From: Eucommia ulmoides
Taxonomy: Eukaryota; Streptophyta; Magnoliopsida; Garryales; Eucommiaceae
Reading direction: 5' to 3'
NCBI GenBank assembly: GCA_016647705.1
Contig: CM028329.1
Location: 61,645,231-61,709,230, forward strand
DNA: 64,000 bases
Shown: piece after piece, positions 24,475-59,753 of the stretch
Position numbering within the stretch: position 1 is the first letter of the stretch
How the letters are laid out: every line of letters starts with the position of its first letter
Made by a program: the position numbers and the translations under genes
Notes under the pieces: model-generated
What the model was told of the DNA's origin: nothing
Seen by the model: the letters and a program-made list of their open reading frames with translations, nothing else
Databases searched by the model: none

Positions 24475-24527
24475 AAAAGACTTTTGCATCTGGTTTAATT
24501 CAATCTCTTCTACTCTATCCCACCAAA

Positions 24528-36489: not shown

Positions 36490-37014
36490 TTACGGCATAA
36501 CTTCATTACTTTGGCTACCAATTTGTAACTGAACCTCGTATTTCTCCAGTGCCTTTAAGCCAATCTGGTCGTCCTCGATGCTCTCTAACAAAGTTCCTAA
36601 TGCTCTTAGGTCTAAGAGTTCTTTCTTTAAGGCTCTATGAACTCTAACTCTAGGCCAAGATTTCGGTAGAGTACGCACTATTACATACACCAACACTGCC
36701 CAATTTGGTTGAAAACCCTTACGTCTTAGGTGGTAGTACATGCGCTCTTTTCTAAGTACATGCATTCTAACACTCTCTTTTTCATTCATTTTTCCTCTTT
36801 CAAATTCTCTCCATAATGGATGTACATCTCGTTCAGCCTCTTCTAAAAATTGTACAAATTCAAAGGCAGTAAGAGGCCGATGATTTTCAAATATATTCTT
36901 TGTCGCCACATCCCAATTTGATGGTAAACCATCAACAATTTGGTTCATTATGTCTCTCTCACTAATTTTGTACCTATAATTCTGCAAAATTCTAGCACTT
37001 GAAATTTTATTCAT
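36490..37014 (-). mobile_element. Gag-like (UBN2-type) fossil inside the Helitron
   Basis: The minus-strand frame contains IMNQIVDGLPSNWDVATK and EFVQFLEEAERD, and later a second similar pattern, RTLPKSWPRVRVH. These resemble the UBN2 segment of plant LTR-element Gag. No protease, integrase or LTR accompanies it. It is a detached LTR-element remnant embedded in or captured by the Helitron. Function in the Helitron is unknown. Confidence 0.45.
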
Positions 37015-37139
37015 CCCTTATTCTCTAACGGGACAACTTTGTAAATAAAGTTTCTCGTAAAAGAATTGTTTTTCCTTACGCAACTTTAACCTAGTACTCA
37101 TTCTCAATACGATAGTGGGTCGTACCATATTGCCTGAGA

Positions 37140-38080
37140 TTGAAGGACATAAATAACACATAAGGCAAACACTAAACTAAAACACTTAACAAACGTTAAA
37201 CAGAAAAAAAATAGAATAAATTTCAGGAACCAAAAAATAATATGTCTCGATAGTGTTCCCTATTTCTTTTTAAGCGTTTCTGTTTTAAGAAAAAACCTAA
37301 GCAAACACTAAACATAAACAACAAACAAAAACACTAAACCAAAATAGAAACACTAAATTGAAACATAAATTAAGAACACAATGACCACAGTTTACTAATT
37401 CTCTTCATAGAGTGTTTATGTTCTAAGAAGAAACTAAACTAAAATACTTAACAAATGATAAACAGGAAAAAAAAAATAGAACAAATTTCAGGAACCAAAA
37501 AATAATATGTTTCGATAGTGTTCCCTATTTCTTTTTAAGCGTTTCTGTTCTAAGAAAAAACCTAAGCAAACACTAAACATAAACAACAAACAAAAACACT
37601 AAACCAAAATAGAAACACTAAATTGAAACATAAATTAAGAACACAATGAACACAGTTTACTAATTCTCTTCATAGAGTGTTTATGTTCTAAGAAGAAACT
37701 AAACTAAAACACTTAACAAATGCTAAACAGGAAAAAAAAAATAGAACAAATTTCAGGAACCAAAAAATAATATGTTTCGATAGTGTTCCCTATTTCTTTT
37801 TAAGCGTTTCTGTTCTAAGAAAAAACCTAAGTAAACACTAAACATAAACAACAAACAAAAACACTAAACCAAAATAGAAACACTAAATTGAAACATAAAT
37901 TAAGAACACAATGAACACAGTTTACTAATTCTCTTCATAGAGTGTTTATGTTCTAAGAAGAAACTAAACTAAAACACTTAACAAATGCTAAACCGGGAAA
38001 AAAAAAATAGAACAAATTTCAGGAACCAAAAAATAATTTGTTTCGATAGTGTTCCCTATTTCTTTTTAAGCGTTTCTGTT
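37140..38080. repeat. Tandem array with ~265-bp period (MITE-derived), 3-4 units
   Basis: The anchor GGAACCAAAAAATAATATGT occurs near 37226, 37491, 37756 and 38021 (period about 265 bp). Each unit carries GTTCCCTATTTCTTTTTAAG, CGTTTCTGTTCTAAG, AAACACTAAACATAAACAAC and GTTTACTAATTCTCTTCATA. A further degenerate unit lies at 38345-38620 (anchor near 38490). Units are almost identical, so expansion is recent. No genuine coding. Confidence 0.85.
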
Positions 38081-39349
38081 ATAACGCACTTTGCGAATTG
38101 AATGCGTTCTTACCTATAACACATCGAAAGTTTTTTTCTTCTTCAAAAAACCTTGTTGCAACCAAACAGAACATGAACAGAAACAAAAAACAGGAACAAA
38201 AACAAAAACAGCAGGAACAGAAACAGAAACAGGAAACAAAAACAGAAAACAGGAACAGGAACCGAAACAGCGAACGGAACAGAAACAACAGGAACACAGT
38301 TTTTTTTTTTAAATCCTCACATATAATAATCACAGTTTTTGTTCGAAAAATAGAAACACTAAATTGAAACATAAATTAAGAACACAATGAACACAGTTTA
38401 CTAATTCTCTTCATAGAGTGTTTATGTTCTAAGAAGAAACTAAACTAAAACACTTAACAAATGCTAAACAGAAAAAAAAAATAGAACAAATTTTAGGAAC
38501 CAAAAAATAATATGTTTCTATAGTGTTCCCTATTTCTTTTTAAGCGTTTCTGTTCTAAGAAAAACCAAACGCTAAACAGAAACAACAAACAAAAACACTA
38601 AACAAAAATAGAAACACTAAATTGAAACATAAATGAACACAATGGATGACTGAACTGAAACTGAATGTGAACAAAGCAACGAACCTGGTGAGCTAAATCA
38701 AAATAACGTCAGCAGCTTTTGGTGTCTTGTTAATGTTCTAACGCACTTTGCGAATTGAATGCGTTCTTACCTATAACACATTGAAAGGTTTTTTTTTTCT
38801 TCAAAAAACCTTGTTGCAACCAAACAGAACATGAACAGAAACAAAAAAAGAGGAACAAAACAAAAACAGCAGGAACAGAAACAGAAACAAGAAACAGAAA
38901 CAGAAAACAGGAACAGGAACCGAAACAGCGAACGGAACAGAAACAGGAATTGGTCATTGTTTGGTGTTCAATCTTGTAATGGTCTGATTAAGGTGTAATT
39001 TGAAAGTAGCTTTTTGTCAGTTTTGGATATAGTTTTTAGGGTAAATTGCACTTTTGGTCATCTAATTTGCACGTTTTTATGTGGCTAAATCATACTTTGC
39101 ACCCCTAATGTTTGGGCACAGTCTTAGTTTACCCCCCTGATGTTATAGGCCCCATTTGGTTATTGTTTGTGTTCCCTGATTCTTGTTTACCCCCCCTGAT
39201 GTTATAGGCCCCCTGATGTTATAGGCCCCATTTGGGTTTAATGTACATAAACACGTTTAATAGTTATTTGGGATTATTTCTTGAATTACTTGAGAATCGG
39301 AGAAACAAAAAAATGTTGATTCCTCTTTGCTCCTACAAAATTATTCTCA
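38081..39349. repeat. AACAGAAACAGGAAC-rich segments and TGATGTTATAGGCCCC repeats
   Basis: Two similar blocks (about 38090-38310 and 38745-38950) begin AACGCACTTTGCGAATTGAA and contain long AACAGAAACAGGAAC runs. They differ in what follows. Between 39130 and 39235 the word TGATGTTATAGGCCCC occurs three times. The long lysine/glutamine-rich open frames here are by-products of the sequence bias. Confidence 0.7.
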
Positions 39350-41310
39350 TACCATCCCGTCGATCACTATCACCACCACCATTACCACCCGTTGACCACC
39401 GTCATCCCGTTGGCCACCACCACCCACCGACCACCATACATTTAAAGGAAAAAAAAAGAACAAATGTCGCAACCAAACAGGTTTCTTGTTTTTGTTCTTA
39501 TAAATGAAAAGAAACAACGGTCATTATCAAACATGAACAGAAACAAAAAACAGGAACAAAAACAGAAACAGCAGGAACAGAAACAGAAACAGAAACATGA
39601 AACAAAAACAAAAACAATTCATAAACAGAAACAGAAACCGAAACCAAATGCTACCTTGTGAGGAGTGTTGAGATCAAATTGCTTGTATTTCGGTGACGCA
39701 TTTGGTTAGTGTGAACTGTTTCTTCTCCCAGAAAACTTTGTTCTGTTCCCAGAAAACTTTGTTTCTGTTCTGTTTCTGTTATGATTTATAAATTCTGTTT
39801 TAGTGTTTCTGTTCCTAAACATGGTGAAAATCTGAGATATAAAATAAAATATTTTTATTTTCCAATTTTCACCACCACCATCACCACCCGCTGACCACCG
39901 TCATCCCGTTGGCCACCACCACCCACCGACCACCATACATTTAAAGGAAAAAAAAAAAAAGAACAAATGTCGCAACCAAACAGATTTCTTGTTTTTGTTC
40001 TTATAAATGAAAAGAAACAATGGTCATTATCAAACATGAACAGAAACAAAAATAGAAACAGCAGGAACAGAAACAGAAACAGGAAACAGAAACAAAAACA
40101 ATTCATAAATAGAAATAGAAACAGAAACCGAAACCAAATGCTACCATGCGAGGAGCGTTGAGATCAAATTGTTTGTAATTAGGTGACGCATTTGGTTAGT
40201 GTTAACTGTTTCTGCTCCCAGAAAACTTTGTTTCTGTTCTGTTTCTGTTCTGATTTATAAATTCTGTTTTAGTGTTTCTGTTCCTAAACATGGTGAAAAT
40301 CTGAGATATAAAATAAAATATTTTTTATTTTTTATTTTTCAATTTTCACCACCACCATCACCACCCGCTGACCACGGTCATCCCGTTGGCCACCACCACC
40401 CACCGACCACCATACATTTAAAGGAAAAAAAAAAAAGAACAAATGCCGCAATCAAACAGGTTTCTTGTTTTTGTTCTTATAAATGAAAAGAAACAATGGT
40501 CATTATCAAACATGAACAGAAACAAAAAACAGGAACAAAAACAGAAACAGCAGGAACAGAAACAGAAACAGAAACAGGAAACAGAAACAAAAACAATTCA
40601 TAAACAGAAACAGAAACCGAAACCAAATGCTACCTTGCGAGGAGCGTTGAGATCAAATTGTTTGTATTTAGGTGACGCATTTGGTTAGTGTTAACTGTTT
40701 TTGCTCCCAGAAAACTTTGTTTCTGTTATGTTTCTGTTATGATTTATAAATTCTGTTTTAGTGTTTCTGTTCCTAAACAAGGTGAAAATCTGAGATATAA
40801 AATAAAACATTTTTTATTTTTATTTTCCAATTTTCACCACCACCATCACCACCCGCTGACCACCGTTATCCCGTTGGCCACCACCACCCACCGACCACCA
40901 TACATTTAAAGGAAAAAAAGAAGAAGAACAAATGCCGCAACCAAACATGTTTCTTGTTTTTGTTCTTATAAATGAAAAGAAACAATGGTCATTATCAAAC
41001 ATGAACAGAAACAAAAAACAGAAACAAAAACAGAAACAGTAGGAACAGAAACAGAAACAGGAAACAAAAACAGAAACAATTCATAAACAGAAATAGAAAC
41101 AGAAACCGAAACCAAATGCTACCTTGCGAGGAGCGTTGAGATCAAATTGTTTGTATTTAGGTGACGCATTTGGTTAGTGTTAACTGTTTCTGCTCCTAGA
41201 AAACTTTGTTTCTGTTCTGATTTATAAATTCTGTTTTAGTGTTTCTGTTCCTAAATATGGTGAAAATCTAAGATATAAAATAAAACATTTTTTATTTTTT
41301 ATTTTTCAAT
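39350..41310. repeat. Tandem array with ~490-bp period of MITE-like units, 4 units
   Basis: The anchor CCCGTTGGCCACCACCACCC occurs near 39407, 39906, 40382 and 40870 (spacing 499, 476, 488). Each unit contains an element bounded by AGGTGACGCATTTGGTTAGT and, inverted, GAAACCGAAACCAAATGCTACCT (given as two words: GAAACCGAAACC, AAATGCTACCT). A conserved spacer TTGCGAGGAGCGTTGAGATC joins adjacent elements. The tips match those of MITEs A and B in the NAD kinase intron. Confidence 0.8.
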
Positions 41311-43329
41311 TTTCGTTCTAAGAATTAAGGGGGGGAAAAACTAACCAAACGCCACCTGAAGCCTATGTTTTAGTGTTGCTGTCAGATTTTAAAAAGCAAA
41401 ACACTGGGAACAGTAAAGAACTGTTCCTAGATTTCCATTTCAAGTTTTCTGGAAACAAAACCATATAGGAAAATTTCAGGAACCAAAAAAAAAAAAAAAA
41501 CACTTAACAAATGCTAAACAGAAAGAAAAAAAAAAAAAAAACAAACAAATTTCAGGAACCAAAAAATAACACATCAAAAGGTTTTTTTTTTCAAAAAACC
41601 TTGTTGCAACCAAACAGAACATGAACAGAAACAAAAAAACAGGAACAAAAATAGAAACAAATGAATAGAGATAGGAGAGTACCTATGAATGGAGATGATG
41701 AAGCTTTGGGCGGCTGACGACCATCCAAATACGACCGTCGGCAACCTTCACCGTCCAAGCCCTTGACTGAAACAGAAACAAAAAACAATTCATAAACAGA
41801 AACAGAAATAGAAACAGAAACCGAAACCAAATGCTACCTTGCGAGGAGCGTTGAGATCAAATTGTTTGTATTTAGGTGACGCATTTGGTTAGTGTTAACT
41901 GTTTCTACTCCCAGAAAACTTTAAATAGAGAGAAAATTTTGTTTTAGTGTTTCTGTTCCTAAACATGATGGAAATGAACAAAAATATGGGAAGAAAAAAG
42001 CAAAACACTGGGAACAGTAAAGAACTGTTCCTAGATTTCCATTTCAAGTTTTCTGGGAACAAAACCATATAGGCAAGTGAAAAAATAGAATAAATTTCAG
42101 GAAAAAAAACCTAAGCAAACACTAAACACTAAACACTATACACTAAACATAAACAACAAACAAAAACACTAAACCAAAACATGAACAGAAACAAAAAACA
42201 GAGACAATTCATAAACAGAAACAGAAACAGAAACCGAAACCAAATGCTACCTTGCGAGGAGCGTTACGATCAAATTGTTTGTATTTAGGTGACGCATTTG
42301 GTTAGTGTTAACTGTTTCTGCTCCCAGAAAACTTTGAATAGAGAGAAAAAACGAAAACAAACCAAATTAGTTTCTGTTCTAATTTATAAATTTTGTTTTA
42401 GTGTTTCTGTTCCTAGATTTCCATATCAAGTTTTCTGGGAACAAAACCATTTCAAGTTTTCAAGAACAAACGTTAAACAGAACATAAACAATGAACACAG
42501 AACATGAATACAATGAACACAGAACATGAACAGAAACCAAACAGAACATGAACAGAAACAAAAAACAGGAACAAAAACAGAATGCTACCTTGCGAGGAGA
42601 TGATGAAGCTATCTTCACCGTCCAAGCCCTTGACTGAAACAGAAACCGAAACCAAAACAATGAACACAGAACATGAACACAATAAACACAATCCAAATTA
42701 GTTTATGTTCTGATTTATAAATTCTGTTTTAGTGTTTTTGTTCCTAAACATGGTGGAAATGAACAAAAATATGAGAAAGAAAAAAGCAAAACACTGGGAA
42801 CAGTAAAGAACTGTTCCTAGATTTCCATTTCAAGTTTTCTGGGAACAAAACCATATAGGAAGTGAAAAAATAAAATAAATTTTCATTTCAAGTTTTCAAG
42901 AACAAACGTTAAACAGAAAAAAAATAGAATAAATTTCAGGAAAAAAACCTAAGCAACACTAAACACTAAGCATAAACAACAAACAAAAACACTAAACCAA
43001 ACATGAACAGAAACAAAAAAACAGAAACAATTCATAAACAGAAACATGAACATAACAATGAACACAATGACACAGAACATGAACAGAACATGAATAGAAA
43101 CCAAACAGAACATGACAGAAACAAAAAACAGGAACAAAAACAGAATGCTACCTTGCGAGGAGATGATGAAGCTACCTTCACCGTCCAAGCCCTTGACTGA
43201 AACAGAAACCGAAACCAAAACCACAGAACATGAACAGAACATGAACAGAAACAAAAAACAGGAACAAAAACAGAATGCTACCTTGCGAGGAGATGATGAA
43301 GCTATCTTCACCGTCCAAGCCCTTGACTG
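41311..43329. repeat. Degenerate MITE pieces alternating with a repeated host-like segment
   Basis: Fragments of the same MITE family continue. Interspersed are four copies of a segment containing CACCGTCCAAGCCCTTGACT (near 41750, 42620, 43185 and 43315), preceded by GATGATGAAGCT. On the minus strand this reads VKGLDGEG followed in the last three by SFIISSQG. The copy near 41690-41770 is the longest (VKGLDGEGCRRSYLDGRQPP) and ends near a GT donor. Confidence 0.6.
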
Positions 43330-43640
43330 AAACAGAAACCGAGACCAAAACCAAATCGACCTTGCGATGGTTTATAGATGCGAGGAGCGATTCCATTAGG
43401 GCAGAGAGGATTCGATAGGCACAGATTAGGGTACGACAAACAGAAATCTAATTCGATAGGCACAGTGAGGGAGATGATGGTGAGGAACGACACGGTTACG
43501 AAGATTAGGGAGGCGACGAAGAAGAAGAAGCACTCGGATTAGGGCACGGAGAAGCGGCGGACGACAGCTACAGGTCTATCAGAGTAGGGAGGCGACGGCG
43601 ACTGCTTGACGGTAAGGATCTCTGGCCTTTTTTTTTTTTT
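43330..43640 (-). other. GC-rich leader/first-exon-like fragment near the Helitron 5' end
   Basis: On the minus strand this reads like a plant 5' leader: CTGTCGTCCGCCGCTTCTCC, GCTTCTTCTTCTTCGTCGCC, then CCTAATGGAATCGCTCCTCG with an ATG opening MESLLASI. Composition differs sharply from the surrounding array. Together with the repeated VKGLDGEG segment it may be a captured piece of a host gene in the same orientation as Rep. The gene is not identified. Confidence 0.4.
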
Positions 43641-43906
43641 TGATAAATTGACAGTAAGGCTCTCTGCCTTTTGTATATTGTGTGTATATTGTGTATGTGT
43701 CTATCAGAGTAGGGAGGCGACTGGACTGCTTAGGCTCTCTGCCATTTTCTCTTGTCTTTTCTCTTATCTATATGTGTATATTGTGTATATTATATTATAG
43801 ATATAGATTATATATAGATGTTGTATATATCAAAAGACATCTAACGGTTACGAATATCCAGAGACATCCAACGGCCCTGGATGTAAATGAGCTGATTTAT
43901 AATAGA

Positions 43907-45198
43907 TAAGTGCAAGTGGTGTGGCATGTTGCTTGTGTTGAGATAATATAATATATAATAATAATAATAATATTAGTGATGTGTTGAGATAATATAATAA
44001 TAATAATAATATTAGTGACAACAACATATTACTTAGAGATAGAGAAAGGGAGAAGGATCGGGGAGCAGACGGGCTTAGGGATAGAGAAACGGATAAGGAT
44101 CAGGGAGCATACGGTTGGTCATGAATTAAAAAAATAAAAAAAAAAATAATAATATAATAATAATAATATAATAAAAACAAACCTCTCTTTTTCATCTCAA
44201 AACAATTATAGTTATTTATTTATTTATAATAGGTTTTGAGTGTTTTTAGTGGTCCGATTTCAGTTCGGATTTTGGTTTCCGATTCCGGTTCAGATTTCAG
44301 GTAGAATTTCTAACTCTTTAATACATATATTTAATTTTTTATTATGTGATTTATGTTATTATTGTCGTTGAATTTTAACTGTTAAATAATTATGATTATA
44401 TTAAAATTATGTGAAAATCATGTTAACGTGTTTTATTTGTCGCATTAATTAAATGCACGTATGAGAGGGATTGGAGTTCTACTGAGCGTTGATTCATGAT
44501 CCCACAGTTTTGATTGCAAGACCGGTGAAAGTGGAACTACCCATGAAATTTTATTTTGAATTACCATTTAATTTGTAATAAAATTAATATAAGCGTTAAT
44601 ATTTGTAATGGGTTAACATTTATAATAACCATGAATACCTTTGGGATGGTTTTTGATTTCCTTCCAAATTGAAAAGGCGAACTTGGTTACTGTTTGGAGA
44701 ATTATATTGGAATTGGAATTGGAATTTATAAATTCGATAATTATAATTATCCTCGCCGCATTGTAAATTAAATATTTTATAAAACGAATTATTGTTTACT
44801 TATCGTCGTCGCATTATAAAAATTCTCAAATTTATCACATAATTGACTATTCGATTTTAGTCGATAATTATAACTGAATTGTATTTGTAAATTATTATTT
44901 TATTGTCATCGTATTGTAAAATTTAAACCGATAATTATAATTGTATATTAAATTACAAATTTAAACGTTAGTATTAAATTGACCGGCGCCAATAATTTAT
45001 TTGTGTATTTAAAATAATGCGATGACAAGAATTTCAGCTGAATTTCTAATTAAATTGTAATAGTTGAATTTATACTTGTCGCCGACGCATTTTAAAATTT
45101 ATCAGATTTCACAGAATGAAATTTTGGTCAATCAACTTTAGTGTTAATTCTCCAAGAGGAGAAATTGCGTGACGATTCTGGAAAACCAGGTCGTTACA
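43907..45198. mobile_element. Solo LTR, right part
   Basis: This continues the LTR that begins at 29270. It contains ATA/ATT microsatellites (43950-44010, 44140-44170) and two related words GGAGAAGGATCGGGGAGCAG and GGATAAGGATCAGGGAGCAT. It ends GTCGTTACA at 45198, followed by TTAAT (45199-45203), which matches the left target duplication. Confidence 0.75.
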
Positions 45199-45436
45199 TT
45201 AATCACTGATCAACGGCTCAATCCAGTACATGGCGAATGAATAGACGCATTACAACAGTTTAGAATTATCTCTGATAAATAAGTAATTTCCTTTGGTCCG
45301 AAATTATTTTTGTTGAAGGTTCAACGAACCAATTGATACATAAAAGTTACAATTTAGTTCAAATGGAGAACCTAATTAAGTCATACTAAACCTAATTAAG
45401 TCATACTAAACCTAATTTAGGTAATGGATGATCATC

Positions 45437-45444
45437 TATATAAA
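45437..45444 (+). promoter_or_regulatory. TATA box of glycosyltransferase copy 2
   Basis: TATATAAA lies 61 bp upstream of the ATG at 45498. The 230 bp upstream (45204-45430) is unrelated to the DNA upstream of copy 1 and contains three AACCTAATT-AGTCATACTA-like direct repeats at about 45370-45420. Confidence 0.65.
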
Positions 45445-45497
45445 AAAAAACTTTTGCTTCTGGTTTAATTCAATCTGTTCTACTCTATCCCACCAAA

Positions 45498-46373
45498 ATG
45501 CGATCTCTATTTTCTGCTCCCAATTCCGCCATTTCCACCCATCAAAACCTTGAATACAATGAAAAATCCACCTCTGTTCTTGGCACACTCTGCAAAACAA
45601 TTCTAATTTCAGGTTTCGCCCTCTATTTTCTCTGTATTTTCCTTTTCAGCACCTCAAATTGTTTTCCTTCAAAGTTGTTCTTCTCCCCTTCAAAACCCGA
45701 ACCATGGATGCCTTCATTTCACGATGATGAAAACGAAGAATTCCGTCTTCTGAATTCAACCGATACTCCGACTAACATAACCCACCTCGTGTTCGGTCTC
45801 CTCGGGTCGAACGAGGCCTGGAAACACAGAAAAGCTTACACGGAGTCATGGTGGAGGCCGAACAGAACCCGGGGCATTCTCTACTTAGACGAACCCCCTT
45901 CACCGGAACTCCTCCCATGGCCGAAATCTTCCTCCTTACAGGGTATCAGACGATATCAGAGCCCTTCTGGAGGAAACAAAACATGTCGCGCCGATCATGG
46001 TGAGGATGGTGAATGCGATAATGGAGTTGTACAGGGATCACGACAGGGAGGGGGTGAGGTGGTACGTTATGGGGGACGATGACTCGTTGTTCTTCGTGGA
46101 GAATTGGGTTCGGGTTTTGTTGGGTATGATCATAACAAGTTTGTTTATATCGGCGGGCAGTCGGAGGCGATTTTGTCTGGTGTTTATTATTCGTTTGATA
46201 TGGGGTTTGGAGGAGCTGGGTTTGCTTTGAGTTATCCTTTGGTGAAAGCCATGGCGAAAGATTTGGAGAACTGTTTTAGGAGGTATCCTTATTTGAGAAG
46301 CGCAGACCTGATCACCATGACTTGTATTGCTGATCTTGGAGTTCCGTTTACTTCCAACAGGGGCATTCATCAG
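45498..46373 (+). CDS. DUF604 glycosyltransferase exon 1, copy 2 (same sequence as copy 3; frame broken by small indels)
   Basis: The exon begins MRSLFSAPNSAISTHQ and ends GIHQ|GTATTTAC as in the other copies. It is 876 bp instead of 879. Two bases are missing near 45930 (TCTTCC against TCTTCTCC in copy 3) and one near 46122 (TTTTGTTGGG against TTTTGTCTGGG), so the part between is out of frame. Otherwise it matches copy 3 throughout. Intron 1 follows to the N gap; exons 2 and 3 are absent. It is probably the same locus as copy 3, read from a poorly polished contig end. Confidence 0.65.
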
Positions 46374-46390
46374 GTATTTACTCTCTCTCT

Positions 46391-46853
46391 CATTTACACT
46401 TTTGACCCTTTAAATTTGATCATATTTTTATTGTCGGTTATCTTTAATCCGTCGCATTTCAAACCAAGTATGTTTGAGAACGTTTCTAAAATTGTCCTCC
46501 TGTCAATTTATTTTTTGGGTAAATTGGGTGAAAAATGATCACGTGCAATGCACATAACCAAATTTGACGGTAAAATAGGTAAAAATTTTTTTTATATATA
46601 TATTTTTAAGGATAAAATATGTAAATCAAATCAAATTAAAAAAAAATAAAAATAAAATTGAATCACCTATTTTTTCTTTAAATTTGGTCAAGTCAATGAC
46701 TATTTCCCATCAAATTCAACAGGAAAAACTAACGGAACAACAATTTTGAAAAACGTTGTAAAACATATATAGGGTTTAAAGTGCGACGGATTAAAATTAA
46801 CTAACAAGATAAAAATACGGTCAAATCTAAGCGTTCGAAAGTGTAATTTTTTT
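46391..46853. mobile_element. Foldback element in intron 1, copy 2
   Basis: This is the same element and position as at 25471-25972, with arms CATTTACACTTTTGACCC and CGAAAGTGTAATTTTT. The remaining 46854-47234 is intron sequence up to the gap, including AGTTTGAAGAAGTCTAATGG that copy 1 lacks. Confidence 0.55.
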
Positions 46854-47234
46854 TATTCTTAAAAATGGTGGTTCTTGCGTAGTGATTGAGAAAGTTTCAA
46901 ACTTTCAAGGGGCTTAAAATGCAATTTTAATCTCTCTAGGTTGGAATATGCTCCAACTATAAATGTTACTTGTTCTTTTTTGTTTAACTTATTGATAAAA
47001 TAGTGGAATTCAACTATTTTATTATCATAAGTTTGAAGAAGTCTAATGGGGGGCGGCTAAGCTATTTTTTTCAATGAAGGGTAAAAATGGTATTTGAATC
47101 ATTGAACACTTCTTTGAAATTAGGATTAATTGCCTTAATTGCATTTACTTCATTATACTTTTTAAACCTACTCCTAACAAAGTGCAAAATTAACATTCTA
47201 TTGGAAAAATGAGAAAGACTTATTTGCCCTCTAT

Positions 47235-47334
47235 NNNNNNNNNNNNNNNNNNNNNNNNNNNNNNNNNNNNNNNNNNNNNNNNNNNNNNNNNNNNNNNNNN
47301 NNNNNNNNNNNNNNNNNNNNNNNNNNNNNNNNNN
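47235..47334. other. Assembly gap of exactly 100 N
   Basis: A run of 100 N is the customary placeholder for a join of unknown size. Sequence before it ends in intron 1 of the glycosyltransferase gene. Sequence after it starts inside the Helitron. Confidence 0.99.
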
Positions 47335-50300
47335 TAGTACTCATTCTCAATACGATAGTGGGTCGTACCATATTGCCTGAGATTGAAGGACATAAATAAC
47401 ACATAAGGCAACACTAAACTAAAACACTTAACAAACGTTAAACAGAAAAAAAATAGAATAAATTTCAGGAACCAAAAAATAATATGTCTCGATAGTGTTC
47501 CCTATTTCTTTTTAAGCGTTTCTGTTTTAAGAAAAAACCTAAGCAAACACTAAACATAAACAACAAACAAAAACACTAAACCAAAATAGAAACACTAAAT
47601 TGAAACATAAATTAAGAACACAATGACCACAGTTTACTAATTCTCTTCATAGAGTGTTATGTTCTAAGAAGAAACTAAACTAAAATACTTAACAAATGAT
47701 AAACAGGAAAAAAAAATAGAACAAATTTCAGGAACCAAAAAATAATATGTTTCGATAGTGTTCCCTATTTCTTTTTAAGCGTTTCTGTTCTAAGAAAAAA
47801 CCTAAGCAAACACTAAACATAAACAACAAAACAAAAACACTAAACCAAAATAGAAACACTAAATTGAAACATAAATTAAGAACACAATGAACACAGTTTA
47901 CTAATTCTCTTCATAGAGTGTTTATGTTCTAAGAAGAAACTAAACTAAAACACTTAACAAATGCTAAACAGGAAAAAAAAATAGAACAAATTTCAGGAAC
48001 CAAAAATTAATATGTTTCGATCGTGTTCCCTATTTCTTTTCAGCGTTTCTTGTTCTAAGAAAAAACCTAAGTAAACCACTAAACATAAACAAACAAACAA
48101 AAACACTAAACCAAAATAGAAACACTAAATTGAAACATAAATTAAGAACACAATGAACACAGTTTACTAATTCTCTTCATAGAGTGTTTATGTTCTAAGA
48201 AGAAACTAAACTAAAACACTTAACAAATGCTAAACCGGGAAGAAAAAAAAATAGAACAAATTTCAGGAACCAAAAATAATTTGTTTCGATAGTGTTCCCC
48301 TATTTCTTTTTAAGCGTTTCTGTTATAACGCACTTTGCGAATTGAATGCGTTCTTACCTATAACACATCGAAAGTTTTTTTCTTCTTCAAAAAACCTTGT
48401 TGCAAACCAAACAGAACATGAACAGAAACAAAAAAACAGGAACAAAAACAAAAACAGCAGGAACAGAAACAGAAACAGGAAACAAAACAGAAAACAGGAA
48501 CAGGAACCGAAAACGCGAACGGAACAGAAACAACAGGAACACAGTTTTTTTTTTTAAATCCTCACATATAATAATCACAGTTTTTGTTCGAAAATAGAAA
48601 CACTAAATTGAAACATAAATTAAGAACACAATGAACACAGTTTACTAATTTCTCTTCATAGAGTGTTTATGTTCTAAGAAGAAACTAAACTAAAACACTT
48701 AACAAATGCTAACAGAAAAAAAAAATAGAACAAATTTTAGGAACCAAAAAAATATGTTTCTATAGTGTTCCCTATTTCTTTTTAAGCGTTTCTGTTCTAA
48801 GAAAACCAAACGCTAAACAGAAACAACAAACAAAAACACTAAACAAAATAGAAACACTAAATTGAAACATAAATGAACACAATGGATGACTGAACTGAAA
48901 CTGAATGTGAACAAAGCAACGAACCTGGTGAGCTAAATCAAAATAACGTCAGCAGCTTTTGGTGTCTTGTTAATGTTCTAACGCACTTTGCGAATTGAAT
49001 GCGTTCTTACCTATAACACATTGAAAGGTTTTTTTTTTCTTCAAAAAACCTTGTTGCAACCAAACAGAACATGAACAGAAACAAAAAAAGAGGAACAAAA
49101 ACAAAAACAGCAGGAACAGAAACAGAAACAAGAAACAGAAACAGAAAACAGGAACAGGAACCGAAACAGCGAACGGAACAGAAACAGGAATTGGTCATTG
49201 TTTGGTGTTCAATCTTGTAATGGTCTGATTAAGGTGTAATTTGAAAGTAGCTTTTTGTCAGTTTTGGATATAGTTTTTAGGGTAAATTGCACTTTTGGTC
49301 ATCTAATTTGCACGTTTTTATGTGGCTAAATCATACTTTGCACCCCTAATGTTTGGGCACAGTCTTAGTTTACCCCCCTGATGTTATAGGCCCCATTTGG
49401 TTATTGTTTGTGTTCCCTGATTCTTGTTTACCCCCCCTGATGTTATAGGCCCCCTGATGTTATAGGCCCCATTTGGGTTTAATGTACATAAACACGTTTA
49501 ATAGTTATTTGGGATTATTTCTTGAATTACTTGAGAATCGGAGAAACAAAAAAATGTTGATTCCTCTTTGCTCCTACAAAATTATTCTCATACCATCCCG
49601 TCGATCACTATCACCACCACCATTACCACCCGTTGACCACCGTCATCCCGTTGGCCACCACCACCCACCGACCACCATACATTTAAAGGAAAAAAAAAAG
49701 AACAAATGTCGCAACCAAACAGGTTTCTTGTTTTTGTTCTTATAAATGAAAAGAAACAACGGTCATTATCAAACATGAACAGAAACAAAAAACAGGAACA
49801 AAAACAGAAACAGCAGGAACAGAAACAGAAACAGAAACATGAAACAAAAACAAAAACAATTCATAAACAGAAACAGAAACCGAAACCAAATGCTACCTTG
49901 TGAGGAGTGTTGAGATCAAATTGCTTGTATTTCGGTGACGCATTTGGTTAGTGTGAACTGTTTCTTCTCCCAGAAAACTTTGTTCTGTTCCCAGAAAACT
50001 TTGTTTCTGTTCTGTTTCTGTTATGATTTATAAATTCTGTTTTAGTGTTTCTGTTCCTAAACATGGTGAAAATCTGAGATATAAAATAAAATATTTTTTA
50101 TTTTCCAATTTTCACCACCACCATCACCACCCGCTGACCACCGTCATCCCGTTGGCCACCACCACCCACCGACCACCATACATTTAAAGGAAAAAAAAAA
50201 AAAAGAACAAATGTCGCAACCAAACAGATTTCTTGTTTTTGTTCTTATAAATGAAAAGAAACAATGGTCATTATCAAACATGAACAGAAACAAAAATAGA

Positions 50301-53300
50301 AACAGCAGGAACAGAAACAGAAACAGGAAACAGAAACAAAAACAATTCATAAATAGAAATAGAAACAGAAACCGAAACCAAATGCTACCATGCGAGGAGC
50401 GTGAGATCAAATTGTTTGTAATTAGGTGACGCATTTGGTTAGTGTTAACTGTTTCTGCTCCCAGAAAACTTTGTTTCTGTTCTGTTTCTGTTCTGATTTA
50501 TAAATTCTGTTTTAGTGTTTCTGTTCCTAAACATGGTGAAAATCTGAGATATAAAATAAAATATTTTTTATTTTTTATTTTTCAATTTTCACCACCACCA
50601 TCACCACCCGCTGACCACGGTCATCCCGTTGGCCACCACCACCCACCGACCACCATACATTTAAAGGAAAAAAAAAAAAGAACAAATGCCGCAATCAAAC
50701 AGGTTTCTTGTTTTTGTTCTTATAAATGAAAAGAAACAATGGTCATTATCAAACATGAACAGAAACAAAAAACAGGAACAAAAACAGAAACAGCAGGAAC
50801 AGAAACAGAAACAGAAACAGGAAACAGAAACAAAAACAATTCATAAACAGAAACAGAAACCGAAACCAAATGCTACCTTGCGAGGAGCGTTGAGATCAAA
50901 TTGTTTGTATTTAGGTGACGCATTTGGTTAGTGTTAACTGTTTTTGCTCCCAGAAAACTTTGTTTCTGTTATGTTTCTGTTATGATTTATAAATTCTGTT
51001 TTAGTGTTTCTGTTCCTAAACAAGGTGAAAATCTGAGATATAAAATAAAACATTTTTTATTTTTTATTTTCCAATTTTCACCACCACCATCACCACCCGC
51101 TGACCACCGTTATCCCGTTGGCCACCACCACCCACCGACCACCATACATTTAAAGGAAAAAAAGAAGAAGAACAAATGCCGCAACCAAACATGTTTCTTG
51201 TTTTTGTTCTTATAAATGAAAAGAAACAATGGTCATTATCAAACATGAACAGAAACAAAAAACAGAAACAAAAACAGAAACAGTAGGAACAGAAACAGAA
51301 ACAGGAAACAAAAACAGAAACAATTCATAAACAGAAATAGAAACAGAAACCGAAACCAAATGCTACCTTGCGAGGAGCGTTGAGATCAAATTGTTTGTAT
51401 TTAGGTGACGCATTTGGTTAGTGTTAACTGTTTCTGCTCCTAGAAAACTTTGTTTCTGTTCTGATTTATAAATTCTGTTTTAGTGTTTCTGTTCCTAAAT
51501 ATGGTGAAAATCTAAGATATAAAATAAAACATTTTTTATTTTTATTTTTCAATTTCGTTCTAAGAATTAAGGGGGGGAAAAACTAACCAAACGCCACCTG
51601 AAGCCTATGTTTTAGTGTTGCTGTCAGATTTTAAAAAGCAAAACACTGGGAACAGTAAAGAACTGTTCCTAGATTTCCATTTCAAGTTTTCTGGAAACAA
51701 AACCATATAGGAAAATTTCAGGAACCAAAAAAAAAAAAAAAACACTTAACAAATGCTAAACAGAAAGAAAAAAAAAAAAAAAACAAACAAATTTCAGGAA
51801 CCAAAAATAACACATCAAAAGGTTTTTTTTTTCAAAAAACCTTGTTGCAACCAACAGAACATGAACAGAAACAAAAAAAACAGGAACAAAATAGAAACAA
51901 ATGAATAGAGATAGGAGAGTACCTATGAATGGAGATGATGAAGCTTTGGGCGGCTGACGACCATCCAAATACGACCGTCGGCAACCTTCACCGTCCAAGC
52001 CCTTGACTGAAACAGAAACAAAAACAATTCATAAACAGAAACAGAAATAGAAACAGAAACCGAAACCAAATGCTACCTTGCGAGGAGCGTTGAGATCAAA
52101 TTGTTTGTATTTAGGTGACGCATTTGGTTAGTGTTAACTGTTTCTACTCCCAGAAAACTTTAAATAGAGAGAAAATTTTTGTTTTAGTGTTTCTGTTCCT
52201 AAACATGATGGAAATGAACAAAAATATGGGGAAGAAAAAAGCAAAACACTGGGAACAGTAAAGAACTGTTCCTAGATTTCCATTTCAAGTTTTCTGGGAA
52301 CAAAACCATATAGGCAAGTGAAAAAATAGAATAAATTTCAGGAAAAAAAACCTAAGCAAACACTAAACACTAAACACTATACACTAAACATAAACAACAA
52401 ACAAAAACACTAAACCAAAACATGAACAGAAACAAAAAACAGAGACAATTCATAAACAGAAACAGAAACAGAAACCGAAACCAAATGCTACCTTGCGAGG
52501 AGCGTTACGATCAAATTGTTTGTATTTAGGTGACGCATTGGTTAGTGTTAACTGTTTCTGCTCCCAGAAAACTTTGAATAGAGAGAAAAAACGAAAACAA
52601 ACCAAATTAGTTTCTGTTCTAATTTATAAATTTTGTTTTAGTGTTTCTGTTCCTAGATTTCCATATCAAGTTTTCTGGGAACAAAACCATTTCAAGTTTT
52701 CAAGAACAAACGTTAAACAGAACATAAACAATGAACACAGAACATGAATACAATGAACACAGAACATGAACAGAAACCAAACAGAACATGAACAGAAACA
52801 AAAACAGGAACAAAAACAGAATGCTACCTTGCGAGGAGATGATGAAGCTATCTTCACCGTCCAAGCCCTTGACTGAAACAGAAACCGAAACCAAAACAAT
52901 GAACACAGAACATGAACACAATAAACACAATCCAAATTAGTTTATGTTCTGATTTATAAATTCTGTTTTAGTGTTTTTGTTCCTAAACATGGTGGAAATG
53001 AACAAAAATATGAGAAAGAAAAAAGCAAAACACTGGGAACAGTAAAGAACTGTTCCTAGATTTCCATTTCAAGTTTTCTGGGAACAAAACCATATAGGAA
53101 AGTGAAAAAATAAAATAAATTTTCATTTCAAGTTTTCAAGAACAAACGTTAAACAGAAAAAAAATAGAATAAATTTCAGGAAAAAAACCTAAGCAAACAC
53201 TAAACACTAAGCATAAACAACAAACAAAAACACTAAACCAAAACATGAACAGAAACAAAAAAACAGAAACAATTCATAAACAGAAACATGAACATAAACA

Positions 53301-54160
53301 ATGAACACAATGAACACAGAACATGAACAGAACATGAATAGAAACCAAACAGAACATGAACAGAAACAAAAAACAGGAACAAAAACAGAATGCTACCTTG
53401 CGAGGAGATGATGAAGCTACCTTCACCGTCCAAGCCCTTGACTGAAACAGAAACCGAAACCAAAACCACAGAACATGAACAGAACATGAACAGAAACAAA
53501 AAACAGGAACAAAAACAGAATGCTACCTTGCGAGGAGATGATGAAGCTATCTTCACCGTCCAAGCCCTTGACTGAAACAGAAACCGAGACCAAAACCAAA
53601 TGCTACCTTGCGAGGGTTTTATAGATGCGAGGAGCGATTCCATTAGGGCAGAGAGGATTCGATAGGCACAGATTAGGGTACGACAAACAGAAATCTAATT
53701 CGATAGGCACAGTGAGGGAGATGATGGTGAGGAACGACACGGTTACGAAGATTAGGGAGGCGACGAAGAAGAAGAAGAGCACTCGGATTAGGGCACGGAG
53801 AAGCGGCGGACGACAGCTACAGGTCTATCAGAGTAGGGAGGCGACGGCGACTGCTTGACGGTAAGGATCTCTGGCCTTTTTTTTTTTTTTTGATAAATTG
53901 ACAGTAAGGCTCTCTGCCTTTTGTATATTGTGTGTATATTGTGTATGTGTCTATCAGAGTAGGGAGGCGACTGGACTGCTTAGGCTCTCTGCCATTTTCT
54001 CTTGTCTTTTCTCTTATCTATATGTGTGTATATTGTGTATATTATATTATAGATATAGATTATATATAGATGTTGTATATATCAAAAGACATCTAACGGT
54101 TACGAATATCCAGAGACATCCAACGGCCCTGGATGTAAATGAGCTGATTTATTATATAGA
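47335..54160 (-). mobile_element. Helitron 5' half, second representation (equals 37092-43906)
   Basis: The sequence follows 37092-43906 in order: the 265-bp array (anchor near 47475, 47735, 48000), the ~490-bp array (about 49593-51560), the VKGLDGEG segments, the leader-like block (53620-53870), and the Helitron 5' end TCTATATAATAAATCAGC at 54160. The stretches I compared differ almost only by one- or two-base indels, concentrated in the first 1.5 kb after the gap. Confidence 0.8.
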
Positions 54161-54398
54161 TAAGTGCAAGTGGTGTGGCATGTTGCTTGTGTTGAGATAA
54201 TATAATAATAATAATAATAATAATAATATTAGTGATGTGTTGAGATAATATAATAATAATAATAATATTAGTGACAACAACATATTACTTAGAGATAGAG
54301 AAAGGGAGAAGGATCGGGGAGCAGACGGGCTTAGGGATAGAGAAACGGATAAGGATCAGGGAGCATACGGTTGGTCATGAATTAAAAAAAATAAAAAA

Positions 54399-54433
<35 letters not shown>

Positions 54434-55461
54434 CAAACCTCTCTTTTTCATCTCAAAACAATTATAGTTATTTATTTATTTATAATAGGTTTTGAGTGTT
54501 TTTAGTGGTCCGATTTCAGTTCGGATTTTGGTTTCCGATTCCGGTTCAGATTTCAGGTAGAATTTCTAACTCTTTAATACATATATTTAATTTTTCTATT
54601 ATGTGATTTATGTTATTATTGTCGTTGAATTTTAACTGTTAAATAATTATGATTATATTAAAATTATGTGAAAATCATGTTAACGTGTTTTATTTGTCGC
54701 ATTAATTAAATGCACGTATGAGAGGGATTGGAGTTCTACTGAGCGTTGATTCATGATCCCACAGTTTTGATTGCAAGACCGGTGAAAGTGGAACTACCCA
54801 TGAAATTTTATTTTGAATTACCATTTAATTTGTAATAAAATTAATATAAGCGTTAATATTTGTAATGGGTTAACATTTATAATAACCATGAATACCTTTG
54901 GGATGGTTTTTGATTTCCTTCCAAATTGAAAAGGCGAACTTGGTTACTGTTTGGAGAATTATATTGGAATTGGAATTGGAATTTATAAATTCGATAATTA
55001 TAATTATCCTCGCCGCATTGTAAATTAAATATTTTTATAAAACGAATTATTGTTTACTTATCGTCGTCGCATTATAAAAATTCTCAAATTTATCACATAA
55101 TATATTGACTATTCGATTTTAGTCGATAATTATAACTGAATTGTATTTGTAAATTATTATTTTATTGTCATCGTATTGTAAAATTTAAACCGATAATTAT
55201 AATTGTATATTAAATTACAAATTTAAACGTTAGTATTAAATTGACCGGCGCCAATAATTTATTTGTGTATTTAAAAATAATGCGATGACAAGAATTTCAG
55301 CTGAATTTCTAATTAAATTGTAATAGTTGAATTTATACTTGTCGCCGACGCATTTTAAAATTTATCAGATTTCACAGAATGAAATTTTGGTCAATCAACT
55401 TTAGTGTTAATTCTCCAAGAGGAGAAATTGCGTGACGATTCTGGAAAACCAGGTCGTTACA
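54161..55461. mobile_element. Solo LTR right part, second representation (equals 43907-45198)
   Basis: It matches 43907-45198, ends GTCGTTACA at 55461 and is followed by TTAAT (55462-55466). Microsatellite lengths differ slightly. Confidence 0.7.
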
Positions 55462-55699
55462 TTAATCACTGATCAACGGCTCAATCCAGTACATGGCGAA
55501 TGAATAGACGCATTACAACAGTTTAGAATTATCTCTGATAAATAAGTAATTTCCTTTGGTCCGAAATTATTTTTGTTGAAGGTTCAACGAACCAATTGAT
55601 ACATAAAAGTTACAATTTAGTTCAAATGGAGAACCTAATTAAGTCATACTAAACCTAATTAAGTCATACTAAACCTAATTTAGGTAATGGATGATCATC

Positions 55700-55707
55700 T
55701 ATATAAA
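55700..55707 (+). promoter_or_regulatory. TATA box of glycosyltransferase copy 3
   Basis: TATATAAA lies 62 bp upstream of the ATG at 55762, in the same upstream context as copy 2. Confidence 0.65.
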
Positions 55708-55761
55708 AAAAAAACTTTTGCTTCTGGTTTAATTCAATCTGTTCTACTCTATCCCACCAAA

Positions 55762-58700
55762 ATGCGATCTCTATTTTCTGCTCCCAATTCCGCCATTTCC
55801 ACCCATCAAAACCTTGAATACAATGAAAAATCCACCTCTGTTCTTGGCACACTCTGCAAAACAATTCTAATTTCAGGTTTCGCCCTCTATTTTCTCTGTA
55901 TTTTCCTTTTCAGCACCTCAAATTGTTTTCCTTCAAAGTTGTTCTTCTCCCCTTCAAAACCCGAACCATGGATGCCTTCATTTCACGATGATGAAAACGA
56001 AGAATTCCGTCTTCTGAATTCAACCGATACTCCGACTAACATAACCCACCTCGTGTTCGGTCTCCTCGGGTCGAACGAGGCCTGGAAACACAGAAAAGCT
56101 TACACGGAGTCATGGTGGAGGCCGAACAGAACCCGGGGCATTCTCTACTTAGACGAACCCCCTTCACCGGAACTCCTCCCATGGCCGAAATCTTCTCCTC
56201 CTTACAGGGTATCAGACGATATCAGAGCCCTTCTGGAGGAAACAAAACATGTCGCGCCGATCATGGTGAGGATGGTGAATGCGATAATGGAGTTGTACAG
56301 GGATCACGACAGGGAGGGGGTGAGGTGGTACGTTATGGGGGACGATGACTCGTTGTTCTTCGTGGAGAATTGGGTTCGGGTTTTGTCTGGGTATGATCAT
56401 AACAAGTTTGTTTATATCGGCGGGCAGTCGGAGGCGATTTTGTCTGGTGTTTATTATTCGTTTGATATGGGGTTTGGAGGAGCTGGGTTTGCTTTGAGTT
56501 ATCCTTTGGTGAAAGCCATGGCGAAAGATTTGGAGAACTGTTTTAGGAGGTATCCTTATTTGAGAAGCGCAGACCTGATCACCATGACTTGTATTGCTGA
56601 TCTTGGAGTTCCGTTTACTTCCAACAGGGGCATTCATCAGGTATTTACTCTCTCTCTCATTTACACTTTTGACCCTTTAAATTTGATCATATTTTTTATT
56701 GTCGGTTATCTTTAATCCGTCGCATTTCAAACCAAGTATGTTTGAGAACGTTTCTAAAATTGTCCTCCTGTCAATTTATTTTTTTGGGTAAATTGGGTGA
56801 AAAATGATCACGTGCAATGCACATAACCAAATTTGACGGTAAAATAGGTAAATTAATTTTTTTTATATATATATATTTTTTAAGGATAAAATATGTAAAT
56901 CAAATCAAATTAAAAAAAAATAAAAATAAAAATTGAATCACCTATTTTTTCTTTAAATTTGGTCAAGTCAATGACTATTTCCCATCAAATTCAACAGGAA
57001 AAACTAACGGAACAACAATTTTGAAAAACGTTGTAAAACATATATAGGGTTTAAAGTGCGACGGATTAAAATTAACTAACAAGATAAAAATACGGTCAAA
57101 TCTAAGCGTTCGAAAGTGTAATTTTTTTATTCTTAAAAATGGTGGTTCTTGCGTAGTGATTGAGAAAGTTTCAAACTTTCAAGGGGCTTAAAATGCAATT
57201 TTAATCTCTCTAGGTTGGAATATGCTCCAACTATAAATGTTACTTGTTCTTTTTTGTTTAACTTATTGATAAAATAGTGGAATTCAACTATTTTATTATC
57301 ATAAGTTTGAAGAAGTCTAATGGGGGGCGGCTAAGCTATTTTTTTCAATGAAGGGTAAAAATGGTATTTTGAATCATTGAACACTTCTTTGAAATTAGGA
57401 TTAATTGCCTTAATTGCATTTTACTTCATTATACTTTTTAAACCTACTCCTAACAAAGTGCAAAATTAACATTCTATTGGAAAAATGAGAAAGACTTATT
57501 TGCCCTCTATTCTGAATCATGGAGACGTGCATGATTTCTGGCATCTCATGTACCTCGCTACTATTGGGCTAAAGCAACCAAATCCATTCCGTTTTGGGGT
57601 CGATAGCTCTGGTCGAGAGGGAGGTAGAATGGATTCCTTATTTGAATGGATGTCGGCCTTCTAGAAGCAACTAGTCGCTTCACGAATGCCTCTTTACTGT
57701 AGCCATGCTTTGAAAGCTACATGTAAGCTTTTAGAGCAAAAATAATTGTTCTTTAATTTCTACTGATGCAGACCCTTTAGGTTATTGTCTGGTTACATCT
57801 AAGCTTATCTACACTGACGCAAACCCAACAAGGAAAGAAATCCAATAGTATAATAAATGTCAAGAAAGCGGAGAAAATAAAATTTATTGTATAATGTCAA
57901 TTTGTTAATATAAATTTAAATGAATGCATTAATGTCTTGTAGATGAATATATTTTATTAAAGTAAATTATTTGTTTTGTTTTTTATATATATAAATACTA
58001 TTGTAAACCTTAAAAAAAAAAAGGGGCATTTTTGTCCAATCACATTTTATTTAAAAATATTATTTGCGTTTTTGGAAACATGAGACTTACTATTTTTGTT
58101 AAGTTTACTTAGATTTTGTTAGTTTCTCACTTAATTACAAGTATAGGGGAGTTATGTGTAATTTTTAAAAACACTTGCGTTGCACTCTTCTATATATTCA
58201 ACTTATATATAAAATTCTATATATTCAACTTATATATAAAATATTTATTAGATGTAATAATTATTATACAAATAAATATAATATAATTACATGTAATTTG
58301 TAATTGTAAGTAATATTACACAGGTACATGTAACTAATATTATACAGGCGTAAGAACATGCATAACTAAGTTATGCATACACAAATAAAAATCAAATTAA
58401 GAGATTAAATCAAAATTTATGCTGTAAATGGACTAACAACATATTGCATCCGTTATTGAAGACTATTCACCGATTAATTATTGTAGATCGATCTCCGCGG
58501 CGACATATCCGGTTTCCTGTCGGCGCATCCACAATTTCCGGTACTCTCTCTCCACCACTTCGACGCCATCGAACCCATCTTCCCCAACAAGGAGAGAGCA
58601 CAATCCTTGAACCACCTGATGAAAGCCGGTGAAGCCGATCAGTCTCGTCTGCTGCAACAAACGGTCTGCTACCACCGGCAAAGCAACTGGTCTTTCTCCG

Positions 58701-59753
58701 TTTCGTGGGGATATTCTGTTCATTTGTACGAGAAAGTCATTCCCCGGAGTTTTCTTAAGATACCCCTAGAGACGTTTAAGCCATGGCTCGAAGCGCAGAA
58801 GCCGTACTACATTTTCAACACGCGGCCCCTCTCCGGCGACTCCTGTGACACCCCGCATGTTTTCTTCTTTGATTCCATCGGGAGAAACGGGAAGGACGGG
58901 ATTGTTACGAGGTATGTCCGATCGTCGGATCGAGGATTGCCTCCTTGCTCGTCTATCGGATACCAGTCGCCATCGGCGGATGTTGTTTCGAGAATTGAGG
59001 TGTTTACGCCGGCGAAGAAACACAAAGAGGTGCGTTTCAAGTATTTTTTTTTGGAAAAATTATATATATATATATATATATTTGTTGTGGATTTATCACA
59101 CTTTTTGTCGTTTAAATTTTAAATTTATTTTAATCGGATAAAATTTAAAAAATTTATAAGTGATTTTAGATGAAAATTTGGTTATGCTGAACCAGTAGTC
59201 TTTGAATGAATATATTTTTATTATTTTATTAAATTTAAAACGTTTTCGGCTAAATTTTTCCTCACAACAATTCATTTCTAGAATAAGAGAAAAGAGTATG
59301 AATCCTATGTTAAATTTAACAGAATAATGAAATAACGAAAATATATACACTATGTGTTATCCAAGAAGTATTAGTCCGGTTGGTTAGGAGAAGTGTCTCA
59401 TTTTCTTGTCAACCAGGGTTCGATTCTCCTGAGAAGTACTTCAAAAATTAAAATCTTCAATTTAATCTTGAATGTACCAGGTTGATGTGAGACAATGTAC
59501 TCTTAAGATCGCTATTCGTAAATTGGTTCAAACACACTTTATCGTAAAAACAAAACTGAAAAAAAGAAGATCATGTACGTACTCATTATAATTCATTTTC
59601 TGTTTAAAATCATTAATAACGTTTTTAATTTTATGTTCAACTGTGTTATGACAGGTGGGCAAAAGTGAATGTTGTGACGTGGTAAGCTTGAGTGGTCGGA
59701 AAGTGGCAAAGGTCAAATTCAGAGCTTGCATGGAAGACGAGGTTATTGCTTAA
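55762..59753 (+). CDS. DUF604 / Fringe-like glycosyltransferase, copy 3 (complete)
   Basis: Exons 55762-56640, 58487-59029 and 59655-59753 have the same lengths and phases as copy 1 and give 506 aa. The ATG at 55762 is preferred over an upstream in-frame ATG at 55687, because the latter lies before the TATA box and copy 1 has no equivalent. The membrane anchor at about 34-51, MGDDDS and the DUF604 part are intact. Differences from copy 1 include R8P, S20Y, S46C, I48F, P52T, P53S, P65S and L71M, and His to Asn in RMV(H/N)AIMEL. None touches the DxD site. Intron 1 holds the foldback element at 56659-57127 and intron 2 the foldback fragment and SINE at about 59153-59570. Likely functional; acceptor substrate unknown. 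Confidence 0.9.
56659..57127. mobile_element. Foldback element in intron 1, copy 3
   Basis: This is the orthologous copy of the element at 25471-25972, with the same arms. The remainder of the intron (57128-58486) parallels copy 1, plus the segment around 57300-57400 that copy 1 lacks. A local TATATTCAACTTATATATAAA duplication lies near 58190-58235 (words TATATTCAACT and TATATATAAA). Confidence 0.55.
59363..59570 (+). mobile_element. tRNA-derived SINE in intron 2, copy 3
   Basis: This is the same SINE as at 28084-28290, with A-box TAGTCCGGTTGGTTAGGA and B-box CAGGGTTCGATTCTCC intact. It predates the duplication. Confidence 0.7.

What the first reader, a model, noticed from the sequence alone, without database searches (positions are those of the whole stretch)
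37092..57510. The 100-N gap hides a missed ~10.1-kb contig overlap, so part of the window is represented twice
47335-57510 repeats 37092-47234 base for base in order. The first base after the gap matches 37092, and the last base before the gap matches 57510. Lengths are 10143 and 10176 bp. In the stretches I compared by eye the differences are one- or two-base indels, mostly in homopolymers and microsatellites and densest just after the gap. By contrast, copy 1 versus copy 3 of the glycosyltransferase and the two Helitron 3' halves carry many substitutions. A tandem array cut by a gap would also align end to end, so the near absence of substitutions is the deciding point. The true locus then holds two units about 21 kb apart, not three.
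Basis: partly seen in the sequence, partly recalled or inferred. Interest (0 to 1): 0.8.

Follow-up and report, generated by a model that had tools for sequence, protein, structure and literature searches.

The report
Missed contig overlap fakes a duplication
A 10-kb stretch of a plant-like chromosome is written twice on either side of an assembly gap, most likely because two overlapping pieces were laid end to end instead of merged, so one copy of a sugar-transferase-like gene in a real tandem array is probably not there.

Summary
37092-47234 (A) and 47335-57510 (B) align from gap edge to gap edge with 6 substitutions and 73 small indels. The window lies in a real ~20-kb tandem array of at least six units plus a partial one, where one gap-free neighbouring pair of similar phase has 0 substitutions in 8,815 bp. 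Few substitutions alone therefore cannot tell an overlap from a young duplicate. Better evidence: unplaced contig C374 (20,980 bp) runs from unit 1 (27923) through one copy of A/B into the right contig (59201); its left flank is unit-1 type at 155 of 160 diagnostic sites, 5 unread. In a three-way vote each contig tends to be the odd one out near its own end (0 of 20,000 shuffles as extreme). Two frame-shifting indels in A's DUF604 gene are absent from B and C374. Array spacing becomes regular once A and B are merged. Best reading: a known artefact, a 'homotype false duplication' at a contig boundary. A hidden unit identical to unit 1 in its tail is the main rival; reads would settle it.

The parts
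37092..47234 (+). Copy A: end of the left contig (tail of unit 1 plus the first 1.8 kb of unit 2)
   Evidence: End-to-end match to copy B, 6 substitutions and 73 indels in 10,117 aligned
47235..47334 (.). 100-N scaffold gap
   Evidence: Only N run in the window and in the 184,770-bp stretch examined
47335..57510 (+). Copy B: start of the right contig, the same DNA as copy A by the best reading
27923..37091 (+). Left flank matched by unplaced contig C374 (reverse complement) before it enters the A/B stretch
   Evidence: C374 is unit-1 type at 155 of 160 diagnostic sites, 5 unread; 35300-36450 (1,151 bp) is present letter for letter
57511..59201 (+). Right flank matched by C374 after a single copy of the A/B stretch
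   Evidence: C374 1-11842 = 59201-47335 at 99.18%; C374's head is U2 type at 44 of 53 sites, 2 U1 type, 7 unread
24464..45433 (+). Unit 1 of the tandem array (20,970 bp)
   Evidence: Unit heads located
45444..46538 (+). DUF604/Fringe-like gene exon 1 in copy A, frame shifted between two indels (45930, 46121)
   Evidence: Two ORF pieces; tblastn; B and C374 agree against A at both indels
55684..56715 (+). The same exon in copy B, frame open (343 aa)
24474..25529 (+). DUF604/Fringe-like exon 1 of unit 1, frame open (351 aa)

Best explanation
Copies A and B are the same stretch of chromosome. The left contig ran about 10.1 kb past the point where the right contig began, a length in the range of long reads. 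The assembler did not merge the two ends, probably because the ~20-kb tandem array made a branch in its graph there, and scaffolding then set them side by side with a 100-N spacer. Shown: the end-to-end match; differences almost all 1-2 base indels, with each contig tending to be odd near its own end; a third contig that passes once through the stretch from unit 1 into unit 2; regular array spacing after merging. Inferred: the read-length origin of the overlap, the graph branch, and that C374 is a by-product of the same tangle (exactly one period long, perhaps closed or trimmed as a circle by mistake).
For: Dovetail from gap edge to gap edge. A/B 6 substitutions and 73 indels against 174 and 23 for U1 vs U2 in 10,921 aligned. 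C374 runs 27923-47234 then 57511-59201 with one copy of the stretch. It is U1 type at 155 of 160 sites left of the stretch (5 unread) and at 152 of 154 in the unit-1 tail (1 U2 type, 1 unread), and U2 type at 44 of 53 in the head (2 U1 type, 7 unread). A type-1 tail probe matches at 99-100% in three places, A, B and C374; other units are at 88-94% (40 of 4,684 first-look candidates scored). Three-way vote: 23 of 24 events in 37092-39119 have B odd; 13 of 17 in 43180-45199 have A odd. Mean distance of an odd event to its own contig's end is 3,317 bp against 5,465 in shuffles, 0 of 20,000 as small (95 of 99 events). Five of the 6 A/B substitutions are settled by C374 against the contig whose end is nearer, the sixth is a microsatellite where all three differ. 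Both frame-shifting indels in exon 1 have A odd, B and C374 agreeing. Spacing: merged 20,970; others 19,676, 19,698, 19,441, 19,620, 20,158. No U2-type head was seen running on into a U1-type middle inside a contig.
Against: A gap-free neighbour pair in the same array has no substitutions over 8,815 bp, and U2 and U3 none over 14,276 clean sites of phases 29600-45433, so near-identical real neighbours exist here. A high ratio of indels to substitutions is not special to A/B either: U3tail+U4head vs U4tail+U5head has 25 substitutions and 149 indels without a gap. C374 is itself an extra contig and could be part of a hidden unit. Two of 53 head sites in C374 are U1 type. The middle of the overlap gives a mixed vote (14 A, 8 B, 8 C374 of 30). 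No read depth was available.
Confidence: 0.87

Rival explanations
1. Hidden unit: A and B belong to two different array units, and the gap hides about 10.8 kb of a further unit (U2-type head, U1-type middle and tail) with a tail identical to that of unit 1. C374 would be that unit, cut open.
For: The array is real, and neighbours U2/U3 are free of substitutions over long stretches. C374 has exactly one period and its ends abut at phase 27922/27923, as a graph loop over a repeated unit would.
Against: The switch from U2-type to U1-type in C374 falls at its own two ends, between 27683 and 27932 on base differences, and by eye right of a TA repeat near 27780 that has the U2-like length (sequences printed), not inside the contig. 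A probe across that phase found C374 only as two end pieces, and no other full-length match outside the C5 array (40 of 2,189 candidates scored). The A/B differences behave like contig-end errors, though that alone cannot exclude an identical unit.
Confidence: 0.09
2. Heterotype duplication: A and B are the two parental alleles of the same place.
For: Also gives a gap between near-identical stretches.
Against: Only 6 substitutions in 10,117; 5 of the 6 lie at events where C374 sides against the contig whose end is nearer (3 B odd, 2 A odd), the sixth (44144) in a microsatellite where all three differ. C374 vs U1 has 0 substitutions over 6,607 clean sites of phases 32700-39370.
Confidence: 0.03
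3. Extrachromosomal circle: C374 is a real circle cut out by recombination between units 1 and 2 at phase ~27.9 kb; A/B still overlap.
For: Length is exactly one period, with U2-type head and U1-type middle meeting at the ends.
Against: The contig would have to be cut open within ~250 bp of the crossover by chance; its indel differences from U1 rise towards its left end, as for a linear piece (17 and 22 events in 27923-29600 and 29600-32700 against 3 and 1 in 32700-34400 and 34400-37092), and it is the odd one in 17 of 28 events of 45200-47234, towards its right end.
Confidence: 0.01

Closest known systems
[quoted passage not shown] 2021, PMC8081667, passages read)
   Same: [quoted passage not shown] differing consensus quality
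   Different: Here it sits inside a real tandem array with near-identical neighbours, and a third contig repeats the locus; read coverage and k-mers could not be checked
False gene gains from duplication errors (Ko et al. 2022, PMC9516828, passages read)
   Same: A gap between the two copies and a falsely gained, partly broken gene copy
   Different: Their main source is heterotype; here no haplotype-like substitutions were found
Tandemly arrayed gene family (here a DUF604 / Fringe-like gene array)
   Same: The real background: units of 19.4-21.0 kb in head-to-tail order
   Different: The A/B pair is at 10.26 kb and does not follow the period

Membership tests
Homotype false duplication at a contig boundary | Copies lie at the two ends flanking a gap and dovetail to the gap edges | tested here: met
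Homotype false duplication at a contig boundary | No haplotype-like sequence differences between the copies | tested here: met
   6 substitutions in 10,117; 5 settled by a third contig in the end-error zones, 1 in a microsatellite. Judged without reads
Homotype false duplication at a contig boundary | Differing consensus quality (errors at contig ends) | tested here: met
   frame-shifting indels in A against B and C374
Homotype false duplication at a contig boundary | Length about that of a (corrected) read | tested here: inconclusive
   10.1 kb is plausible; read lengths unknown
Homotype false duplication at a contig boundary | Low read coverage / k-mer copy number above expectation | not testable with these tools
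   No reads held
True tandem duplicate (hidden unit) | A U2-type head continuing into a U1-type middle somewhere in the assembly | tested here: not met
   Seen only as the two abutting ends of C374, not inside a contig (with 40 of 2,189 candidates scored). The gap itself could hide it
True tandem duplicate (hidden unit) | Spacing equal to the array period | tested here: inconclusive
   10.26 kb as written; an unknown gap length could restore the period
Heterotype (allelic) duplication | Substitutions at heterozygous sites across the copies | tested here: not met

The most novel reading that the evidence does not exclude
A and B are two real units whose 10-kb stretches are identical, the gap hides about 10.8 kb of a recombinant unit (U2-type head joined to a U1-type middle), and C374 is that unit or a circle released by recombination between units 1 and 2: an array caught in the act of growing or shedding a unit.
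Probability: 0.1. Interest if true: 0.35.

Novelty: already known. Interest (0 to 1): 0.15.

Why it matters
Anyone counting these glycosyltransferase-like genes, dating the duplications, or calling copy-number variants here would count one extra, frame-shifted copy and a false 10-kb 'recent duplication'. It also shows a limit of a rule of thumb: in a young tandem array, lack of substitutions does not separate a missed overlap from a true duplicate, while an odd-one-out vote with a third contig and typing at diagnostic sites help.

Tried and rejected
Substitution count as sole criterion: rejected, because the gap-free U2/U3 pair is also substitution-free over long stretches. The vote alone: it shows that the differences are mostly contig-end errors, but cannot by itself exclude an identical hidden unit. 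Direction of indels: in the first half 20 lack in B and 18 in A, in the second half 4 and 31 (Fisher p = 0.00019); consistent with missing bases at each contig's end but weaker than the vote. Heterotype reading: rejected for lack of haplotype-like substitutions. Broken reading frame as a mark of A alone: rejected, because exon 1 is also in pieces in C374 and in unit 5; what remains is that A's two shifts are absent from B and C374. Search for a paper on this assembly by its size ('946.67 Mb'): 0 occurrences in the five papers listed; the species was not identified. Literature searches were seen as listings with abstract starts only; two papers were read as passages.

Rows dropped before counts: one search printed matches of 150 bp or more; one search used length cut-offs of 1,500, 300 and 1,000 bp and 85% identity; one search left out columns within 6 of a gap and pairs with 200 or fewer sites; one search printed phases 25000-33500 only; searches left out columns within 3 of a gap in U1 or U2; one search left out 4 'all differ' events of 99. 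The whole-genome probes scored 40 candidates of 2,183, 4,684, 2,189 and 274.

Full report
WHAT WAS CLAIMED.

OBSERVATION. It holds to the base. The only N run is 47235-47334, and the match runs from 37092 and the first base after the gap to the last base before the gap and 57510. Anchored global alignment gives 10,117 aligned pairs, 6 substitutions and 73 indel events of 85 bases; 71 of 73 are of 1-2 bases, 51 of 73 in short-repeat context by a simple rule. Other aligners write some paired indels as mismatches and give 10 (BLAST), 13 (three-way, clean sites) or 26 (MAFFT) substitutions.

SURROUNDINGS. The window is C5:61645231-61709230 of a 947-Mb assembly in 391 contigs. A 1-kb probe from the stretch, fetched neighbours and self-comparison show a real tandem array going on well past the window: unit heads at 24464, 45434 (A) or 55697 (B), 75373, 95071, 114512, 134132 and 154290 in window-based coordinates, the last unit partial, with a weaker copy beyond (exons at 163188 and 165031). 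Intervals are 20,970 (U1 to A), 10,263 (A to B, gap included), then 19,676, 19,698, 19,441, 19,620 and 20,158. Only A to B breaks the period. The gene is DUF604/Fringe-like by Pfam in unit 1 and in B/unit 2 (PF04646, PF02434; the ORF piece of A gave no family); matches to its two exons recur in units 3 to 7. Unit 1 holds Helitron domains (PF14214, PIF1), and units 2 to 6 align to that part of unit 1.

Nine pairs were compared. In the gap-free right contig, similar phases of neighbouring units, U2tail+U3head against U3tail+U4head, have 0 substitutions in 8,815 aligned and 18 indels. The next pairs have 25 in 8,455 with 149 indels, 67 in 8,550 with 162, and 116 in 8,076 with 49; A and B against U2tail+U3head have 147 in 8,255 and 150 in 8,276; U1 against U2 (26143-37091) 174 in 10,921 with 23 indels; U2 against U3 for the same phase 12 in 10,963 with 13. 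Over phases 29600-45433, U2 and U3 have 0 in 14,276 clean sites (sum of eight segments). So a pair of separately assembled, gap-free units can be as free of substitutions as A and B, and a pair can be rich in indels without a gap.

WHAT DECIDES. (1) Contig C374, unplaced, 20,980 bp, reverse strand. Its positions 1673-20980 match 47234-27923 (99.28%) and 1-11842 match 59201-47335 (99.18%). So it starts in unit 1, passes once through the A/B stretch and goes on into the right contig. Typing at sites that separate U1 from U2: left flank 155 of 160 U1 type, 5 unread; tail 152 of 154 U1 type, 1 U2 type, 1 unread; head 44 of 53 U2 type, 2 U1 type, 7 unread. B's tail is U1 type at 153 of 154, A's head U2 type at 38 of 38. 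The 1,151 bp of 35300-36450 are in C374 letter for letter; with that probe C374 and the left contig are at 100%, and the other scored places at 97% or less (40 of 274 candidates scored). The type-1 tail is found at 99-100% in A, B and C374; the other units are at 88-94% (40 of 4,684 scored). (2) Three-way vote of A, B and C374 on 99 events: in 37092-39119, 23 of 24 have B odd and 1 A odd; in 39120-43179 it is mixed, 14 A, 8 B and 8 C374 of 30; in 43180-45199, 13 of 17 have A odd (2 C374 odd, 2 all differ); in 45200-47234, near C374's own end too, 17 of 28 have C374 odd, 7 A odd, 2 B odd, 2 all differ. Mean distance to the odd contig's own end is 3,317 bp, with shuffled labels 5,465 (sd 312), 0 of 20,000 as small. 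The differences look like contig-end errors. (3) Two of A's indels, at 45930 and 46121, shift a frame that is open in U1 and B; at both, B and C374 agree against A. C374 and unit 5 have broken frames of their own.

THE RIVAL THAT REMAINS. If a hidden unit had a U2-type head and U1-type middle and tail, A, B and C374 would look the same. Such a unit needs a junction from U2-type head to U1-type middle. I saw it inside no contig: the switch in C374 lies at its two ends, between 27683 and 27932 on base differences, and a probe across that phase finds C374 only as two end pieces and full-length matches only in the C5 array (40 of 2,189 candidates scored). C374 is exactly one period long with abutting ends; a mistaken circular closing or trimming of a piece running from unit 1 to unit 2 explains this, because units 1 and 2 are ~98% alike there. 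That is inference; a true loop or an excised circle is not excluded, and the gap itself could hide the junction. I put the missed overlap at 0.87 and the hidden unit at 0.09.

KNOWN KIND. Rhie et al. 2021 (PMC8081667; [quoted passage not shown] Ko et al. 2022 (PMC9516828; passages) list gaps between copies among the marks of false duplications. This case meets the sequence-level marks; coverage and k-mers could not be tested. It is an ordinary artefact, in an array that makes it easy to misjudge.

Noticed in passing
Window-based 104000-119500 (about C5:61749200-61764700; L013-L015): Unit 4 from phase ~33500 to its end and the head of unit 5 up to phase ~29400 carry many more indels against U3 than the other units (for example 23 and 28 events in the bins at 35464 and 42464 of U4, against 1-9 in U2, U5 and U6), and the U5 exon 1 matches only in pieces. 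No N lies there. It may be an unmarked join or poorly polished filler.
   Followed up: partly
Window 24464-64000 and C5 onward to about 61810800: A tandem array of at least six ~20-kb units plus a partial one with a DUF604/Fringe-like gene and Helitron sequence; U2 and U3 are nearly identical except in their first 5 kb.
   Followed up: partly
C374:1-20980 (L022-L024): Unplaced contig exactly one array period long with abutting ends, most likely a redundant copy of this locus.
   Followed up: yes
39370-41314: 489-bp minisatellite in about four copies in the unit-1 tail; the stretch that aligns cleanly with U2-U5 there is only 391-452 bp, so those units seem to hold fewer copies.
   Followed up: no
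2161-6767 and 17481-17867: Upstream genes: ABC transporter exons (PF00005, PF01061) and an NAD kinase C-terminal exon (PF20143).
   Followed up: no
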